A DNA stretch of 64,000 nt from NCBI GenBank assembly GCA_014169315.1, contig AP022133.1, positions 1,612,001 to 1,676,000 of the forward strand. Reading direction: 5' to 3'. Source of the stretch: Enterobacter cloacae (GTDB lineage Bacteria > Pseudomonadota > Gammaproteobacteria > Enterobacterales > Enterobacteriaceae). How positions within the stretch are numbered: position 1 is the first letter of the stretch; each line of letters opens with the position of its first letter. The translations under genes were made by a program, and so were the position numbers. This document shows, one piece after another, positions 55,267 through 63,750 of this stretch. The notes beneath the pieces are model-generated. The model saw only the letters and a list, made by a program, of their open reading frames with translations. It searched no databases and was not told where the DNA came from.

Positions 55267-55309
55267 TTAGGGTGAGGGGCTTAGACCGCACTGAGCTGCA
55301 TAAAGCACC

Positions 55310-55720
55310 GGGGGGGATTGACTCGCTTCGCTCGCCGTTACTCGGCCCATCCACGGGCCTCGCCCCTTCGGGGCCAACGCAGGCGTTTTTGTGCGGGCAG
55401 ATTCCTCGCAGGCTCGTCATCTGTCCAACTGGCTGTCGCCAGTTGTCGAACCCCGGTCGGGTGTTCTCATCCCCCCCGCAGGCGTGCAACATGCGAAAAA
55501 AAAAGCCCGTACTTTCGTACGAGCTCTTTCTCGAATATGGCGGTGAGGGGGGGATTGACTCGCTTCGCTCGCCCTTCGGGCAGCCTGTTCGCTACGCTCT
55601 CAGTCTGTCCAACTGGCTATCGCCAGTTGTCGAACCCCGGTCGGGTGTTCTCATCCCCCCCGCAGGCGTGCAACATGCGAAAAAAAAGCCCGTACTTTCG
55701 TACGAGCTCTTTCTCGAATA
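55310..55720 (-). repeat. Tandem tRNA-3'-end repeats downstream of tRNA-Ser 1
   Basis: Downstream of the tRNA (leftwards) is a second copy of the tRNA's last 19 nt at 55538-55556, 183 bp from the tRNA 3' end, and a truncated further unit starting at 55310 (237 bp from the copy at 55538). Each full unit has the tRNA tail, a terminator hairpin (GCTCGTAC GAAA GTACGGGC then a long T-run), a GGGGTTCGA-containing stretch and a CAACTGGC/GCCAGTTG hairpin. Layout resembles the E. coli tyrT (rtT) repeats. Confidence 0.8.
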
Positions 55721-55808
55721 TGGCGGTGAGGGGGGGATTCGAACCCCCGATACGTTGCCGTATACACACTTTCCAGGCGTGCTCCTTCAGCCACTCGGAC
55801 ACCTCACC
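55721..55808 (-). tRNA. tRNA-Ser(GGA), copy 1
   Basis: An 88-nt class-II tRNA read on the minus strand, from GGTGAGGTGTCCGAGTGGC to the encoded CCA. The anticodon arm gives CCTGGAAAG with anticodon GGA; the long variable arm and GGTTCGAATCC T-arm are intact. It matches the E. coli serW/serX tRNA as I recall. A promoter of stable-RNA type lies upstream at 55851-55879. Confidence 0.95.
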
Positions 55809-55850
55809 ATATTGTTTGCTGCCTGACCGCTTGGGGGGCAACGGGGCGCT

Positions 55851-57513: not shown

Positions 57514-57622
57514 GATTAACTCCTGATGTTCTGTTGATGTAATTAGCTTATATTCAGAGTTAATATCCCGGTAGATAGTGAAAATGGCATTCACTGTTCT
57601 GAAAATAGAACGATGGGGGTTT

Positions 57623-58528
57623 ATGCAGGATCTCAATGACTTCGTCTGGTTCGTTAAAGTGGTCGACTACGGCGGTTTTGCGGCGGCGGGGCGGGCACTC
57701 GATCTGCCCAAGTCCAGGCTGAGCCGCCGGATTGCGCAGCTGGAGGAGCGGCTCGGTGTGCGTTTAATACAGCGCACGACCCGGCAGTTCACGGTGACAG
57801 AGGTTGGGCAAACCTTCTATCAGCACTGCAAAGCCATGATGGTGGAAGCGGAAGCCGCAGAGGAGGCCGTTGCGGCGCTACAGGCTGAACCGCGCGGTAT
57901 TGTCAGACTCACCTGTCCGGTAACGCTGTTACACGTGCATATTGGGCCAATGCTGGCACGATTTATGGCGCGTTATCCTGGTATTAATCTTCAGCTTGAG
58001 GCGACAAATCGGCGTGTTGATCTCGTCAGTGAAGGGATTGATGTGGCGATACGCGTTCGCCCACGCCCGTTTGATGACAGCGATCTGGTATTGCGGGTGT
58101 TGGCTGACAGGGGGCATTGTCTTGTCGCGGGGCCACAGCTGATCCAACAGCAGGGGATGCCCGAAATGCCGTCTGAACTTAGTGCCTGGCCGGGTCTCAG
58201 TATGGGAGAAGGGAAACAGGTGCATAAGTGGGAACTCACCGGGCCAGAGGGCGCAAGAGCGGAAATCCATTATGTGCCTCGCCTCATTACCACCGACATG
58301 CTGGCGCTGCGGGAGGCGGCGGTGGCGGGCGTGGGGGTAGTGCAGTTGCCCATTTTGATGGTGAAAGATCAGCTTGCCACAGGGGAACTGGTACGGGTAC
58401 TTGAGGCGTGGGAGCCAAGACGGGAGGTGATCCATGCGGTATATCCGTCCCGGCGCGGTTTGCTGCCGTCGGTCAGGGCGCTGGTGGATTTTCTCACTGA
58501 AGAGTATGCGCGGATGGTGGAAGACTGA
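57623..58528 (+). CDS. LysR-family regulator
   Basis: A 301-aa LysR regulator. The helix-turn-helix is LNDFVWFVKVVDYGGFAAAGRAL plus DLPKSRLSRRIAQLEERLGV; the effector domain starts near residue 90. ATG 57623 begins MQDLNDF and has GGGGG upstream; an earlier in-frame ATG at 57578 would add a non-homologous tail. Divergent from the pirin operon, its likely target; the dlt operon lies downstream on the same strand but after a 258-bp gap. Confidence 0.85.
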   Translation: MQDLNDFVWFVKVVDYGGFAAAGRALDLPKSRLSRRIAQLEERLGVRLIQRTTRQFTVTEVGQTFYQHCKAMMVEAEAAEEAVAALQAEPRGIVRLTCPVTLLHVHIGPMLARFMARYPGINLQLEATNRRVDLVSEGIDVAIRVRPRPFDDSDLVLRVLADRGHCLVAGPQLIQQQGMPEMPSELSAWPGLSMGEGKQVHKWELTGPEGARAEIHYVPRLITTDMLALREAAVAGVGVVQLPILMVKDQLATGELVRVLEAWEPRREVIHAVYPSRRGLLPSVRALVDFLTEEYARMVED

Positions 58529-58786
58529 TGCTTTTTGTCCGGCGACCCGACCGGTGACACAACGTCCTTCTGGCGACTTTATTTTTATGTACAGTGTTCA
58601 CGCGGACACTGTACATACCGTTACACAGCAACGCTCATCTTTTTATATACACCTGGTATAGAATGTCGCAAAAGATAAGTCTCAAATTCAACCGAAAAAC
58701 ACGCGGCTATTTGTTGTGTCAGTGTTAGAAAAATGAGTGTCATAAATTTTAAATAAATGAATACTATGTAGTCTTACCTACTTATA
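58529..58786. other. Intergenic region upstream of the dlt operon
   Basis: About 260 AT-rich bases that should hold the dlt promoter. A TATAAT word sits at 58782-58787, right at the dltD start codon, and no clear ribosome-binding site precedes that ATG, so the true transcription start or the true start codon may differ from what is given. CACGCGGACACTGTACATAC near 58600 could be a regulator site but has no known match. Confidence 0.5.
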
Positions 58787-59923
58787 ATGAAAATCAAAAA
58801 TACGCTTTGTTTACATATCCTGATGGCTACTCTGGCTGTCTTGTTTCTCTGTGTTCACCCGTTGGTGACAAGCTTTGATCCACCGCTTGAGTTCCAGCCG
58901 CTGATTAAATCGATGGATGGGACACCAAAAGAACAAGCGGAAAGAATAGCCACGATTTCTCATGCGTTAAAAGGGAATTCGATTTTCTTCATCGGGGCAT
59001 CTGAAGTGGCTACCTCTGAAGAAGAACATTACGCTGTATATAATTACTTTAATAAGCAATTGCACAAACCTGTAGTGGCGTATGGTGATAGTTTTGTCGA
59101 TGACACGACACAATTTTTACTGTTTTCACGCTTTAAGGATGACCTTAACGCAAACAGTAAAGTTGTTTTACTTCTGGCTCCTGACAGCTTTTATTCGAAA
59201 GGTCTGCCACCAGCAATTTTTGCCGATAATTTCCCGGGGTCTATTTTCAATCCGCTGATGAAAGATCCGCAGGCACGTCCTTTGCTGACTCATTATTTAC
59301 AGCATATTGATGCGAAGGATATAAGCCATTTAACGTTTGGCCAAATGGCTGTGTATGGCTGGCATCCGGATCTCATCTGGGAAGAGGTGAGCGATCAGTT
59401 CGCCAACTTCTGTACGATGATTAAAAACGACTGGCTGGCCATGCTCAATATTGAACCACAGACGGTACAACCGTGGCCGCAGCAGTCGACAACCCCTGTT
59501 GTTCCTGACTGGAATAAAGAGCTGGCTCATGCGCGAGAGTTGAATAAAAAACGCCAGCAGAGCGCGGCTACAATGTGGATGGATAAGTCTGTTTATGAAC
59601 CGGGGGACAAGCCGGAACAGTGGGATGACACACCTGTGGTGCCCGAACAGATTGCGTCGTTAAAGAAAACTATCCAGCTTCTGAAACAACGCCATGTACA
59701 GGTGATTGCTATCGTCGACCCTGTTAACCCCTGGGCGCTCTACAACACCAACACATTCCGGCCGGTTGATAAGCAAATTCAAACCATTCTGGAAGAGAAC
59801 CAGGTTCCCTATTTAGATATGTACGCTATGCCGTATGAGAACGGCTGGAACTGGGATCGCCTGCATCCTTCTGAACTGGCATGGGTTCCTATGATTCGCT
59901 TTATTGCAGAGAGCTTTAAATGA
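58787..59923 (+). CDS. dltD: DltD-like membrane-anchored thioesterase/acyltransferase
   Basis: A 378-aa SGNH-type protein with one N-terminal signal anchor (about 6-25) and the rest in the periplasm. The catalytic residues of DltD are in place: Ser72 in FFIGASEVAT, and Asp357/His360 in WDRLHPSELAW near the C-terminus. In Gram-positive bacteria DltD takes the D-alanyl group from the membrane carrier and puts it on teichoic acid. Here it comes first, not last, in the operon. It is followed without a gap (ATGA overlap) by dltX. Start site support is weak (see the intergenic note). Confidence 0.85.
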   Translation: MKIKNTLCLHILMATLAVLFLCVHPLVTSFDPPLEFQPLIKSMDGTPKEQAERIATISHALKGNSIFFIGASEVATSEEEHYAVYNYFNKQLHKPVVAYGDSFVDDTTQFLLFSRFKDDLNANSKVVLLLAPDSFYSKGLPPAIFADNFPGSIFNPLMKDPQARPLLTHYLQHIDAKDISHLTFGQMAVYGWHPDLIWEEVSDQFANFCTMIKNDWLAMLNIEPQTVQPWPQQSTTPVVPDWNKELAHARELNKKRQQSAATMWMDKSVYEPGDKPEQWDDTPVVPEQIASLKKTIQLLKQRHVQVIAIVDPVNPWALYNTNTFRPVDKQIQTILEENQVPYLDMYAMPYENGWNWDRLHPSELAWVPMIRFIAESFK

Positions 59924-60042
59924 TGAAAACCGCGATTCGTCTTTTTTTCCTTTATCTCCTGCTGGCAATCACCGTCGTTGCGTGGACCTCTGTCGATGAC
60001 AGCATGAGTTTACAGCTGCATTTTGAATATCAAAAGTTCTGA
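59920..60042 (+). CDS. dltX: DltX-like 40-aa membrane peptide with C-terminal FxYxxF
   Basis: A 40-residue peptide, too short to be found by usual ORF length cut-offs, lying between dltD and dltB. It has one transmembrane helix (LFFLYLLLAITVVAW) and a periplasmic tail that ends HFEYQKF. The last six residues FEYQKF match the FxYxxF C-terminal motif of Gram-positive DltX, whose tyrosine is the proposed acceptor carrying D-Ala across the membrane for DltD. The ATG overlaps the dltD stop (ATGA) and dltB starts 6 nt after its stop, so it is fully embedded in the operon. Confidence 0.85.
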   Translation: MMKTAIRLFFLYLLLAITVVAWTSVDDSMSLQLHFEYQKF

Positions 60043-60048
60043 GGTTGA

Positions 60049-61170
60049 ATGATGTACAGCTCAGGAATGTTTTTTTTCTATTTGTTTTCATCAGCCCTGG
60101 TGTTTGCGCTGGTTAATCGCCTGTTGCATCGTCGACTGACGTATTTATCTGCCTTTTCAGTGCTGTCAGCATTAGGATGGGGGTATATTTTCCAGGGTGA
60201 TTATATTGTCCCGGTTGCCGTTTTTTTAGTTTTTTATGTTCTCGTTACATTAAAAGAGAAGGGGTGGTTAAAAACCTGGCAAGCGGTCTCCTTAACGTTG
60301 CTGCCATTGTTTTTGGTGAAATTACACTTAAATAACCACTGGGGAATGATCGGCCTCTCTTTCATGACGTTCCGCGCGATTGATGTATTGCTTTATCGCA
60401 GTAAAAAAGATGGTCGGAATTTCCTGCACTATTTCTGCTATCTCTTTATGCCCTTTGTTATTCTGGCCGGCCCAATGTACCGCTGGCGGACATGGATTAG
60501 CGATGTGAGTAAGCCTGTCTTCGCGATTACCCGCGAGCAGTTTTTAGTGGCGTTAGAGCAAATAGTTACCGGTATCGTCCAGAAGTTCTTGTTCGCTATG
60601 CTGGTCGACACGCTGGTTGTGCAGCGGTGGAGCCATGAGCCGTTCTCGCTGACCGTAGGTGTGGTGATGTCGATTGCCTATAGCGCCTATCTCTACTTTG
60701 ATTTTGCTGGTTACAGCAATATGGCTATTGGGGCCGGTCGCTTATTTGGACTGAATATTCCGGCGAACTTCAATATTCCCATCCTTGCGAAAAACCCGCA
60801 GGATTTCTGGCGTCGCTTCCACATTAGCCTTTCTGAATGGCTGCGCGATGTGGTCTTTATGCCAATTTATATGAACTTGATGAAGTTCAACTTTTTCCGC
60901 CAGAACAAAACGCTGGCGCAGAATATCGGTATTTTTTGCACCCTGTTCTGTATGGGAGCGTGGAACGGACTCGAACGCCATTATGTCATCAGTGGCGCAC
61001 TCTTTGGCGCTATTTCTGTTGTTCACAACATGCTGCTGTGGTTAGCCAAACGTAACCCGACGTTGCACAACGGGTTACAGCATCCGGTTATTGCATTTTT
61101 GGGGCGAATTCTGACGCTGGGAAGCGCCGCAGCCTCCCTTTACATCTTTAGTGGAATGTCACCTCTATGA
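60049..61170 (+). CDS. dltB: DltB-like MBOAT acyltransferase
   Basis: A 373-aa multi-spanning MBOAT with the DltB pattern YFDFAGYSNMAIGAGRLFG, then DFWRRFHISLSEWLRDVVF. The first conserved His (His258, in RFHISLS) is present. The second, catalytic His of the usual WHG motif is replaced by Asn306 in MGAWNGLERHY; His311 lies close by. It would move the aminoacyl group from DltC-phosphopantetheine onto DltX. GAGG precedes ATG 60049; the gene overlaps dltA by 4 nt. Confidence 0.87.
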   Translation: MMYSSGMFFFYLFSSALVFALVNRLLHRRLTYLSAFSVLSALGWGYIFQGDYIVPVAVFLVFYVLVTLKEKGWLKTWQAVSLTLLPLFLVKLHLNNHWGMIGLSFMTFRAIDVLLYRSKKDGRNFLHYFCYLFMPFVILAGPMYRWRTWISDVSKPVFAITREQFLVALEQIVTGIVQKFLFAMLVDTLVVQRWSHEPFSLTVGVVMSIAYSAYLYFDFAGYSNMAIGAGRLFGLNIPANFNIPILAKNPQDFWRRFHISLSEWLRDVVFMPIYMNLMKFNFFRQNKTLAQNIGIFCTLFCMGAWNGLERHYVISGALFGAISVVHNMLLWLAKRNPTLHNGLQHPVIAFLGRILTLGSAAASLYIFSGMSPL

Positions 61171-62600
61171 AAAATCAATCCGATCTCCAGGAACTGCAAG
61201 ATTTCTTACGTGCGGCATTACGTGATCCCGCAGTTCCCCAGCAACTGGCCATCAGCGGTAGTGACGAAGCCTTAAGCTGGTTGCAACTTTCCTCTGCCGT
61301 GGTGGACTGGGAGCAACGCTATCAGCGTTGCCAGCCCTCCGCCGGCATGCCAGTCGTCTTGTACGGACATCAGCAGGCTGAGTTCGCCGTGGCGATTTAT
61401 AGCTGCCTGTTGCACAACATTCCGTATATCCCGGTGGACTGTATCTACCCGCAGGAGCGGCTTAAAGAGATCTGCCACCTGGCGAATGCGCCTTACTATT
61501 ACGATGTCGCGACAAAGCAGTTCATCGCCACCGGTGAAACGGGCAAGGTGCTGGCCGAACAGGATCTCGCTTATATCATGTTCACCTCTGGCAGCACTGG
61601 TAAACCGAAAGGGGTGCAGATTGGACGTGAAAGCGTATGGCACTTCATGAAATGGGTAAGCCAGGACTTTTTCCTGCCGGAAAAACCGGTGTTAATGAAC
61701 CACGCGGTGTTCAGCTTCGACCTCTCCCTGATCCCTTTACTGGCGAATCTGGCGATGGGGGGACATATCGTTCTGAACGCAAAAGAAGATATCCTGCAGG
61801 ATAACTGGCTGGACAGACTGAAAATGAATGCTGTTTCTGCCTGGGTTTCAACACCGTCTTTTGCTTATCAGAAATTGCTTTCTCCGCAGTTCAACAGTGA
61901 ATATTTGCCTGACCTGAGCGTCTTTATTTTCATTGGTGAAGTATTAAATAAAGCGTTGGTTAAACAGTTACGTCGCCGTTTCCCACAGGCAAAAATTATC
62001 AATTCCTATGGCCCAACGGAAGCGACCATCGCGACCACCGTGGTTGAGATAACGGATGAGATCCTCAACAGCGACAACGCAGTGTTGCCGGTTGGGGTGA
62101 TGATGCCTGACAGCAAAATGGAAATTACCGCCGAAGGCGAACTGATTATCTGGGGTAAGAACGTGATGCGCGGCTATCTCGGTTTACCGCAGGAGAACGC
62201 GGAAAAATTACTGCACCGGGAAAGTGAAGCGTTTCGTGGCTACCGAACCGGCGACCTGGGTTATGAAGATGGACTCATCTACTGCCAGGGGCGTAACGAT
62301 AGCCAGGTCAAACTGAACGGCTACCGTATTGAAATCAACGAGATTGAAAACCGCCTGCTGGCCATGTCAGGTATCAGTGAAGCGGTGGTTCTGCCGCTGA
62401 TGAAATCCTGCGGTAGCGTGTTGCGTATTGCCGCTTTCTGCGTGACGGATTTGGCACCGGAGGCCATTAAAACATCGCTGGCGAAAGTGGTGCCACCTTA
62501 TATGGTACCTTCACAAATCATCATTAAAGACGCTTTGCCGCTGAATCCTAACGGCAAAATTGACCGTAAGTTGCTGGACTCTCATGCCCGCACGAATTAA
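61167..62600 (+). CDS. dltA: DltA-like aminoacyl-carrier protein ligase
   Basis: A 477-aa adenylate-forming enzyme that activates an amino acid and loads it on DltC. Core motifs: FTSGSTGKPKG (about 139-149), NSYGPTEATIA (A5), GYRTGDLGYEDG (A7) and the C-terminal NPNGKIDRK with the catalytic Lys. Asp185 in FSFDLSLIP fits the residue that holds the substrate amino group. At the place where Gram-positive DltA has a Cys in FCGE (D-Ala selection) this protein has Ile256 in FIFIGEVL. Substrate is therefore probably but not surely D-alanine. ATGA overlap with dltB. Confidence 0.88.
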   Translation: MKNQSDLQELQDFLRAALRDPAVPQQLAISGSDEALSWLQLSSAVVDWEQRYQRCQPSAGMPVVLYGHQQAEFAVAIYSCLLHNIPYIPVDCIYPQERLKEICHLANAPYYYDVATKQFIATGETGKVLAEQDLAYIMFTSGSTGKPKGVQIGRESVWHFMKWVSQDFFLPEKPVLMNHAVFSFDLSLIPLLANLAMGGHIVLNAKEDILQDNWLDRLKMNAVSAWVSTPSFAYQKLLSPQFNSEYLPDLSVFIFIGEVLNKALVKQLRRRFPQAKIINSYGPTEATIATTVVEITDEILNSDNAVLPVGVMMPDSKMEITAEGELIIWGKNVMRGYLGLPQENAEKLLHRESEAFRGYRTGDLGYEDGLIYCQGRNDSQVKLNGYRIEINEIENRLLAMSGISEAVVLPLMKSCGSVLRIAAFCVTDLAPEAIKTSLAKVVPPYMVPSQIIIKDALPLNPNGKIDRKLLDSHARTN

Positions 62601-62617
62601 TTACCCCAGGAAAGGTT

Positions 62618-62836
62618 ATGGAACAAGAAATTCTCGCCCTGTTTGAAAAAGTGTTATCCCGCAAAGTGGGTTTTCACGATGAGCTGATTGAATCCGACAT
62701 TCTCGACTCCATTCTGGCGGTCGACATGGTACTGGAGGTGCAGGACGTGTACGGTTGTATGATCCCGCCGACCGAAGTTGCGACGGTGCTGAAAACTCCG
62801 GCAGATTTGGCTCGCTATATTGAAGAAAACCGTTAA
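62618..62836 (+). CDS. dltC: DltC-like carrier protein
   Basis: A 72-aa acyl-carrier-type protein with the phosphopantetheine Ser31 in ESDILDSILAVDMVLE, three to four helices and net negative charge, as in DltC (about 78 aa). It starts 17 nt after dltA with AGGAAAGG upstream. It receives the aminoacyl group from DltA and offers it to DltB. A terminator ends the operon 30 nt later. Confidence 0.85.
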   Translation: MEQEILALFEKVLSRKVGFHDELIESDILDSILAVDMVLEVQDVYGCMIPPTEVATVLKTPADLARYIEENR

Positions 62837-62865
62837 TCGCGATTGGTGTTAACGTTTCTGTGAAG

Positions 62866-62897
62866 ACCCTGGATGATTTCATTCAGGGTTTTTTATT
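62866..62897 (+). terminator. Terminator of the dlt operon
   Basis: ACCCTGGATGA and TCATTCAGGGT form the stem, followed by TTTTTTATT. Confidence 0.88.
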
Positions 62898-62904
62898 GCC
62901 CCAT

Positions 62905-63662
62905 TCGCAGGCGTGCAACATGCGAAAAAAAAGCCCGTACTTTCGTACGAGCTCTTTCTCGAATATGGCGGTGAGGGGGGGATTGACTCGCTTCGCTCGC
63001 CGTTACTCGGCCCATCCACGGGCCTCGCCCCTTCGGGGCCAACGCAGGCGTTGTTCAAAAACGCTTCCGGCGTTTTTGTGCGGGCAGATTCCTCGCAGGC
63101 TCGTCATCTGTCCAACTGGCTGTCGCCAGTTGTCGAACCCCGGTCGGGTGTTCTCATCCCCCCCGCAGGCATGCAACATGCGAAAAAAAGCCCGTACTTT
63201 CGTACGAGCTCTTTCTCAAATATGGCGGTGAGGGGGGGATTGACTCGCTTCGCTCGCCGTTACTCGGCCCATCCATGGGCCTCGCCCCTTCGGGGCCAAC
63301 GCAGGCGTTGTTCAAAAACGCTCCCGGCGTTTTTGTGCGGGCAGATTCCTCGCAGGCTCGTCATCTGTCCAACTGGCTGTCGCCAGTTGTCGAACCCCGG
63401 TCGGGTGTTCTCATCCCCCCCGCAGGCGTGCAACATGCGAAAAAAAAGCCCGTACTTTCGTACGAGCTCTTTCTCGAATATGGCGGTGAGGGGGGGATTG
63501 ACTCGCTTCGCTCGCCCTTCGGGCAGATTCCTCGCAGGCTCGTCATCTGTCCAACTGGCTGTCGCCAGTTGTCGAACCCCGGTCGGGTGTTCTCATCCCC
63601 CCCGCAGGCGTGCAACATGCGAAAAAAAAGCCCGTACTTTCGTACGAGCTCTTTCTCGAATA
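62905..63662 (-). repeat. Tandem tRNA-3'-end repeats downstream of tRNA-Ser 2
   Basis: Three extra copies of the last 19 nt of tRNA-Ser lie at 62966-62984, 63223-63241 and 63481-63499, at steps of 257, 258 and 182 bp up to the tRNA itself. Each is followed leftwards by the same terminator hairpin and GC-rich spacer as in the first array; the 182-bp unit is a shortened form of the 258-bp unit lacking a GGGGCGAGGCCCGTGGATGG-type segment. Copies are nearly identical. Confidence 0.85.
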
Positions 63663-63750
63663 TGGCGGTGAGGGGGGGATTCGAACCCCCGATACGTTGC
63701 CGTATACACACTTTCCAGGCGTGCTCCTTCAGCCACTCGGACACCTCACC
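63663..63750 (-). tRNA. serX: tRNA-Ser(GGA), copy 2 (serX position)
   Basis: Identical 88-nt tRNA-Ser with GGA anticodon and encoded CCA, minus strand. Its place next to ghrA matches E. coli serX. A promoter with TTGACG/17 bp/TACATT lies upstream at 63785-63813. The 3' end leads into three tandem repeats of its own last 19 nt. Confidence 0.95.

What the first reader, a model, noticed from the sequence alone, without database searches (positions are those of the whole stretch)
58787..62836. Complete dlt-type operon, with a DltX-like peptide, in a Gram-negative
The five genes dltD-dltX-dltB-dltA-dltC form one overlapping operon. The Dlt pathway adds D-alanine to teichoic acids, which Enterobacter does not have. 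The 40-aa gene at 59920-60042 ends FEYQKF, matching the FxYxxF tail of Gram-positive DltX, so the whole relay (DltA, DltC, DltB, DltX, DltD) is present. It should aminoacylate some periplasmic or surface polymer. The gene order is D-X-B-A-C, not X-A-B-C-D, and the segment lies between two tRNA-Ser repeat arrays, hinting at acquisition.
Basis: partly seen in the sequence, partly recalled or inferred. Interest (0 to 1): 0.82.

Follow-up and report, generated by a model that had tools for sequence, protein, structure and literature searches.

The report
Gram-negative Dlt operon, altered acyltransferase
This bacterium carries a complete five-gene machine that should attach an amino acid to its outer envelope, as Gram-positive bacteria do; the machine was already known in related bacteria, but its central membrane enzyme lacks a histidine thought to be essential in this enzyme family.

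Summary
dltD-X-B-A-C is intact at 58787-62836. The 40-aa frame is a real gene: it lies between dltD and dltB in 59 of 59 enterobacterial and 7 of 7 Bordetella-type loci, ends [F/Y]xYQ[K/Q]F, and is under purifying selection (pN/pS 0.21). It is not new in kind: dlt genes are in print for Dickeya, Pectobacterium, Photorhabdus and, as dra, Bordetella. D-X-B-A-C is the usual enterobacterial order. The acquisition hint is right: relatives have the same tRNA-Ser interval without dlt.

DltB of this Gram-negative clade has Asn (N306) where the 'invariant' MBOAT histidine should be: 115 of 117 intact homologues have Asn and none His, while 120 of 120 DltBs nearest to a Mogibacterium one have His. The partner Tyr345 is Ser. 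The other relay residues are kept, and published dlt/dra phenotypes suggest that the clade works. Enterobacterial DltA also has Ile for the D-Ala-selecting Cys269, so D-Ala is likely but Gly is open. An RstA-like box precedes dltD. The acceptor is unknown; phosphoglycerol-glucan is not the shared one. New variant of a known kind.

The parts
58610..58639 (+). Conserved upstream block TGTACATACCGTTACACAGCAACGCTCATC holding the RstA-like box TACATACCGTTACA (58612-58625)
   Evidence: TACATNNNGTWACA within 300 bp upstream of dltD in 59 of 61 enterobacterial/plasmid loci; alignment of 25 sequences, where L052-L054 keep little beyond the box; similarity to relatives' dlt segments begins at 58610 in 5 of 5
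58654..58664 (+). Extended -10-like element TGGTATAGAAT
   Evidence: TGGTATA[GT]A[AG]T in 48 of 61 loci, starting 41-42 bases after the start of the box; the generic sigma-70 scan listed no promoter
58787..59923 (+). dltD, SGNH-type periplasmic transferase; Ser72, Asp357, His360
   Evidence: PF04914 4.6e-23; the Ser and D-x-x-H motifs are in 68 of 68 aligned rows (short rows left out, L067 kept)
59920..60042 (+). dltX-like 40-aa membrane microprotein; acyl-shuttle tail FEYQKF with Tyr37 (codon 60028-60030)
60049..61170 (+). dltB, MBOAT acyltransferase; His258 kept, Asn306 (codon 60964-60966) in place of the invariant His, Ser315 in place of Tyr345
61167..62600 (+). dltA, adenylation enzyme; Ile256 (codon 61932-61934) at the place of B. 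cereus DltA Cys269
62618..62836 (+). dltC, carrier protein; phosphopantetheine Ser31
   Evidence: PF00550 9.3e-9; the Ser is in 60 of 60 aligned rows
62866..62896 (+). Likely intrinsic terminator (ACCCTG...CAGGGT, then T run)
   Evidence: read by eye; not listed by the scan
57578..58528 (+). LysR regulator, last native gene before the inserted dlt segment
   Evidence: NF011573 1.1e-186; empty-site comparison
63663..63750 (-). tRNA-Ser(GGA) after the segment; its twin is at 55721-55808

Best explanation
This is an inserted Gram-negative Dlt-type operon of the same clade as Dickeya/Pectobacterium dlt and Bordetella dra. Inferred mechanism: DltA activates a small amino acid (D-Ala most likely, Gly possible) and loads it on DltC Ser31. 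DltB takes it from the DltC arm across the inner membrane and passes it to Tyr37 of DltX. DltX hands it to Ser72 of DltD, which esterifies a periplasmic or outer-membrane acceptor and lowers negative surface charge. Shown here: the parts, their catalytic residues apart from DltB, their conservation, and the shared clade. Inferred: the chemistry. In this clade DltB works without the MBOAT histidine on TMH7: the usual [Asn/Asp/His + His] pair has become [His258 + Asn306], so His258, the only histidine kept across the clade, is the likely base and Asn306 a supporting residue. The operon is probably switched on through an RstA-like box, in the envelope/acid stress network.
Against: No biochemical test. 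The equivalent His is reported as required in PatA and DltB, so an Asn enzyme could be inactive or do something else. N306 is one of 22 columns fixed differently between the two sets, so it may be only a part of wider drift. The 120 Gram-positive-type sequences are the nearest to one query (of 6980 hits), not a survey. DltA has Ile at the D-Ala-selecting Cys in 60 of 60 enterobacterial rows, which weakens 'D-Ala'. This DltX could not be tied to Gram-positive DltX beyond the last 8 columns (hhalign probability 1.9%). The published phenotypes are from other genera. From memory, the 2016 Dickeya paper (not held) found dltB but not dltD mutants polymyxin-sensitive and no control by PhoP; the first would not fit a relay that needs DltD, the second speaks against a PhoP-driven RstA route in Dickeya.
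Confidence: 0.67

Rival explanations
1. The operon makes a glycyl (not D-alanyl) ester: the enterobacterial DltA, with Ile for Cys269, prefers Gly, so the system is a functional parallel of Vibrio AlmEFG built from Dlt parts.
For: Ile in 60 of 60 enterobacterial rows while 7 of 7 beta-type rows keep Cys. Cys269 sets D- over L-Ala preference in B. cereus DltA (PMC4176424). Gram-negative glycylation by a DltA relative is known (PMC11253843).
Against: Two Peptostreptococcus DltAs also have Ile, and Gly-loading AlmE has a Cys (C316, which I take to be the same place), so Ile does not spell Gly. A larger residue there would mainly exclude L side chains, which D-Ala tolerates.
Confidence: 0.2
2. DltB of this clade is not the acyl-transfer catalyst: it only scaffolds DltC, DltX and DltD, and another residue or protein makes the acyl-Tyr.
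For: The histidine called invariant (PMC11035591) or universally conserved (PMC12148441) is absent from every DltB of the clade examined. Catalytically dead MBOAT relatives (HHATL/Gup1) exist (recalled).
Against: Other active-site residues are held rigidly: His258 120 of 120, Asp267 119 of 120. No other acyltransferase in the operon. A Dickeya dltB mutation has a phenotype.
Confidence: 0.15
3. The acceptor is the phosphoglycerol on osmoregulated periplasmic glucans, the closest Gram-negative match to the glycerol-phosphate of lipoteichoic acid.
For: This genome has OpgB (NF003000, 1510 bits), as do 5 of 15 dlt-carrying genomes tested, at 68-85% identity.
Against: No OpgB match at E<=1e-20 in 9 of 15 dlt-carrying genomes: Dickeya (2), Pectobacterium (2), Symbiopectobacterium, Candidimonas (2), Paralcaligenes, Bordetella; one more (Serratia) has only a 33% partial match.
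Confidence: 0.05
4. An ordinary, already described operon with nothing unusual: same enzyme, same chemistry as Gram-positive Dlt.
For: dlt genes in Dickeya/Pectobacterium/Photorhabdus and dra in Bordetella are in print.
Against: All four enzymes miss their curated Gram-positive cut-offs, and DltB differs at two of the three residues (His336, Tyr345; not His289) that PMC11035591 names as key.
Confidence: 0.18

Closest known systems
dlt operon of Dickeya dadantii and Pectobacterium
   Same: Same genes and D-X-B-A-C order (Dickeya oryzae L031, Pectobacterium L015, L017-L020), same FEYQKF tail, same Asn in DltB, same Ile in DltA (Pectobacterium and Dickeya rows), same upstream box. PMC3544676 reports induction in aphids and polymyxin sensitivity of a dltB mutant.
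   Different: There it is said to be in all sequenced genomes (PMC10142376); in this genus it is accessory (15 of 61 genomes). Pandin et al. 2016, which I recall as naming 'dltDXBAC' operons, was not held.
Bordetella dra locus
   Same: DltX-like peptide, Asn-type DltB, same clade. [quoted passage not shown]
   Different: Order C-D-X-B-A; DltA keeps Cys; D, B, A, C 24-48% identical in L065.
Gram-positive dltXABCD
   Same: Same five activities, DltX FxYxxF tail, DltB fold, DltD triad.
   Different: DltB has His/Tyr where this has Asn/Ser; DltX similarity limited to the tail; acceptor is teichoic acid, which enterobacteria lack (general knowledge).
PatAB and other MBOAT-SGNH acetylases
   Same: Acyl-Tyr shuttle motif logic and MBOAT plus SGNH pair (PMC12148441).
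   Different: There the motif is fused to the MBOAT C-terminus and the donor is acetyl-CoA; here it is a separate peptide and a carrier protein.
Vibrio cholerae AlmEFG
   Same: DltA-like enzyme for an amino-acid envelope modification (PMC11253843).
   Different: The MBOAT, DltX and SGNH parts are absent there (recalled); its transferase AlmG has no counterpart here.

Membership tests
Dlt pathway (Gram-positive type) | DltA adenylation enzyme with the FDLS Asp | tested here: met
   best PDB matches are DltA 3e7w/3fcc; FDLS kept
Dlt pathway (Gram-positive type) | DltA pocket Cys269 for D-Ala selection | tested here: not met
   Ile256
Dlt pathway (Gram-positive type) | DltC with phosphopantetheine Ser | tested here: met
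Dlt pathway (Gram-positive type) | DltB MBOAT fold | tested here: met
Dlt pathway (Gram-positive type) | Invariant MBOAT His (His336) in DltB | tested here: not met
   Asn306
Dlt pathway (Gram-positive type) | DltX microprotein with FxYxxF tail | tested here: met
   FEYQKF, conserved
Dlt pathway (Gram-positive type) | DltX recognised by the Pfam family model or by profile comparison | tested here: not met
   no DltX-family hit at E<=10 for 10 members (that the family is in this copy was not checked); hhalign aligns the tail only
Dlt pathway (Gram-positive type) | DltD with Ser-Asp-His triad | tested here: met
   motifs in 68 of 68 aligned rows; sequence only
Dlt pathway (Gram-positive type) | NCBIfam equivalog cut-offs for DltA/B/C/D | tested here: not met
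   368 v 560, 193 v 375, 23 v 68, 51 v 150 bits
Dlt pathway (Gram-positive type) | Teichoic acid as acceptor | not testable with these tools
   -
Gram-negative dlt/dra clade | DltB in one clade with Dickeya and Bordetella DltB | tested here: met
   100/100 branch (the tool warns of long branches)
Gram-negative dlt/dra clade | DltX-like peptide between D and B | tested here: met
Gram-negative dlt/dra clade | Alanine esters on the outer membrane | not testable with these tools
PatAB-type MBOAT-SGNH acetylase | Shuttle motif fused to the MBOAT C-terminus | tested here: not met
   DltB ends IFSGMSPL
AlmEFG | AlmG-type lipid A acyltransferase in the operon | tested here: not met
   family scans of the five operon proteins show none

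The most novel reading that the evidence does not exclude
A whole clade of MBOAT acyltransferases, the DltB enzymes of Gram-negative dlt/dra operons, catalyses acyl transfer without the histidine held to be invariant in the superfamily, by a swapped pair (His258 as base, Asn306 as helper) acting on a separate DltX peptide; in enterobacteria it is coupled to a DltA with a re-cut amino-acid pocket and is driven by RstA.
Probability: 0.48. Interest if true: 0.78.

Novelty: new variant of a known kind. Interest (0 to 1): 0.6.

Why it matters
Papers call one MBOAT histidine invariant; a working clade with Asn there would test directly which residue is the base. The DltX-like gene, named only hypothetical, uncharacterised or 'inner membrane protein' in the records seen, gives a second, distant system for the acyl-Tyr shuttle. 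The operon also lies between insertion sequences on two Klebsiella/Enterobacter plasmids, so its spread and its link to antimicrobial-peptide tolerance deserve attention.

Tried and rejected
Phosphoglycerol on periplasmic glucans as the common acceptor: rejected, no OpgB match in 9 of 15 dlt-carrying genomes. PhoP box: none upstream of dltD in the window at up to 2 mismatches to a recalled consensus, but 10 of 25 sequences have a minus-strand match with 1-2 mismatches at -46 to -59; this is left open for those relatives. A nearby substitute His (His311): rejected, it is N, R or Q in some relatives. Class and phylum scans with the DltB profile at E<=1e-40: 3 of 369 and 10 of 398 genomes match; 1 and 6 of these (the window's genome in both) score over 600 bits, the rest 141-156 bits and probably other MBOATs. 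No near-identical match in the E. coli collection. Sigma-70 scan: no promoter. DltX profile against the PDB: nothing. Literature: 10 searches. No title or abstract start in their listings is on an Asn-type DltB or a Gram-negative DltX protein; the library lacks most subscription papers, and I recall one (Pandin 2016) that names DltX in soft-rot bacteria.

Changed on checking: the frame-shifted rows recounted, the nearest-relative statement softened because the tree disagrees, decayed loci renamed, confidence lowered slightly for the recalled dltD and PhoP results.
Full report
What is there. dltD overlaps dltX by ATGA, dltB overlaps dltA, and dltC follows after 17 bases. DltD matches PF04914. 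DltB, DltA, DltD and DltC match the Dlt models of NCBIfam clearly to weakly, and all fall short of the curated Gram-positive cut-offs. The 40-aa frame matches no Pfam or NCBIfam family.

The small peptide is a gene. A scan of genome contigs with DltB gave 77 loci, and ten more came from the genus scan. In all 59 enterobacterial loci given to the selection test (L001-L058 and L066; some may be the same species twice) a frame ending F[E/Q/V]YQ[K/Q]F precedes dltB. Seven of seven loci from Bordetella, Candidimonas, Paralcaligenes and a proteobacterial MAG have a 41-44-aa frame ending YEYQQF, FQYQQF or FVYQQF in the same slot (in L061 inside an 86-aa frame). L064 is decayed but still encodes the tail. 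Over 48 distinct DNA sequences pN/pS is 0.211; the other two frames give 1.04 and 2.71 and contain stops in every sequence. A profile search of about 5.8 billion proteins found 124 relatives; of the 120 listed, 116 have the Tyr at position -4, none has a Pfam domain, and the names given are hypothetical, uncharacterised or 'inner membrane protein'. Hydropathy peaks over residues 5-21 behind a basic N-terminus, so the tail should face the periplasm. Beyond the tail no homology to Gram-positive DltX could be shown, so I call it DltX-like: it should work like DltX.

The order D-X-B-A-C is the norm in the enterobacterial loci. The Bordetella type is C-D-X-B-A.

Papers, read in passages only, say of this His: 'universally conserved', its counterpart required in PatA and DltB (PMC12148441), and 'invariant His336' (PMC11035591). 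PMC11035591 also lists the eukaryotic pairs as Asn or Asp plus a His on TMH7. Here the pair is His on the first site plus Asn on TMH7. Since His258 is the only histidine kept across 40 diverse sequences, I infer that it is the base. That the clade works is suggested by the Dickeya dltB mutant, which dies under polymyxin (PMC3544676, passages; [quoted passage not shown] the original paper was not seen). The other relay residues, DltC Ser31 and DltD Ser72/Asp357/His360, are kept in all aligned rows. Against this, I recall that the 2016 Dickeya paper, not held, found no polymyxin defect in dltD mutants.

DltA. The Cys that gives B. cereus DltA its D-Ala preference (PMC4176424, PMC8972799, PMC11253843, passages) is Ile256 here, as in 60 of 60 enterobacterial and plasmid rows. 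The 7 beta-type rows keep Cys; of 12 Gram-positive or other rows 8 have Cys, 2 Ile, 2 Ala (rows under 400 residues left out). D-Ala stays the first guess, Gly the second.

Regulation. A 30-bp block starting TGTACATACCGTTACA lies upstream of dltD in Enterobacter, Kosakonia, Dickeya, Pectobacterium, Serratia and others; in loci L052-L054 little beyond the box is kept. TACATNNNGTWACA is found in 59 of 61 loci. The RstA box that I recall is TACATNTNGTTACA; the window has it with one mismatch (9 of 100 shuffles of the window hold such a match). In the whole genome TACATNNNGTTACA occurs three times (the reversed control pattern twice): before dlt, before csgD and before asr (identities by NCBIfam). 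Only the csgD site fits the recalled consensus exactly; dlt and asr each differ at the middle T. csgD and asr are RstA targets as I recall; two papers that I tried for this were not held. So dlt is probably an RstA operon.

Origin. In genomes G005 and G047 (no dltB match) and G007 and G019 (dlt elsewhere) the tRNA-Ser(GGA)-ycaC-like-pirin-lysR-tRNA-Ser(GGA) interval is present without dlt. In G007, G010, G019, G024 and G031 the dlt segment sits between two tRNA-Ser(TGA) genes. Homology to those five copies starts at 58610, two bases before the box, and ends at 62836-62880. Fifteen of 61 genomes of the genus carry dltB at 85% identity or more; three further weak hits are partial. By identity the window's DltB is nearest to a Pluralibacter MAG (94%), Phytobacter and one Kosakonia (90%) and 85-89% to the copies of its genus. 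The tree, which lacks the Pluralibacter row, instead joins it to an Enterobacter copy (99/89) before Phytobacter. So a separate acquisition or a move between tRNA-Ser sites are both open.

Acceptor. Unknown. OpgB is present here, but has no match in 9 of 15 dlt-carrying genomes, so phosphoglycerol-glucan is not the shared acceptor. LPS is the standing guess in print (PMC5541007 citing Pandin 2016).

Noticed in passing
L088, L089, L090 (plasmids NZ_CP041250.1, NZ_CP071862.1, NZ_CP063883.1): dltDXBAC lies between insertion sequences on two plasmids (Klebsiella electrica; Enterobacter cloacae, the latter typed conjugative with an aminoglycoside resistance gene nearby). A third record (K. pneumoniae, typed conjugative) holds part of dltB, dltA and dltC at its start.
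   Followed up: partly
55300-55830 and 62905-63750: Arrays of repeated tRNA-Ser 3'-end plus terminator-like units beside both tRNA-Ser(GGA) genes; similar arrays flank the interval in relatives.
   Followed up: partly
tRNA-Ser(GGA) v tRNA-Ser(TGA) loci, L101, L103, L107-L109: In the 6 genomes of the genus looked at (of 15 with dlt) the segment lies in a tRNA-Ser-flanked slot, but at a different tRNA-Ser in the window's genome. The segment holds only the five dlt genes, so recombination between tRNA-Ser repeats is a possible carrier.
   Followed up: partly
P0195, P0202, P0204, P0206, P0215, P0235: Metagenomic Asn-type DltBs of 374-380 aa, one labelled Bacillota, branch deep in the clade; their operons were not seen.
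   Followed up: no
L046: A contig labelled Chryseobacterium carries an enterobacterial dlt operon; probably a mixed assembly.
   Followed up: no
L044, L066 (Symbiopectobacterium), L056 (Pectobacterium sp.), L064 (labelled Enterobacter sp. EA-1), L005 (dltD only): Copies with broken frames suggest loss of the operon in some lineages.
   Followed up: no
G000:C1:1681476-1681489 and 2631330-2631343: The only other TACATNNNGTTACA sites of the genome lie before csgD and asr.
   Followed up: yes
-46 to -59 upstream of dltD in L011-L013, L027, L028, L030, L031, L036, L055, L088: A recurrent minus-strand PhoP-box-like direct repeat (1-2 mismatches to a recalled consensus), not found in the window.
   Followed up: no
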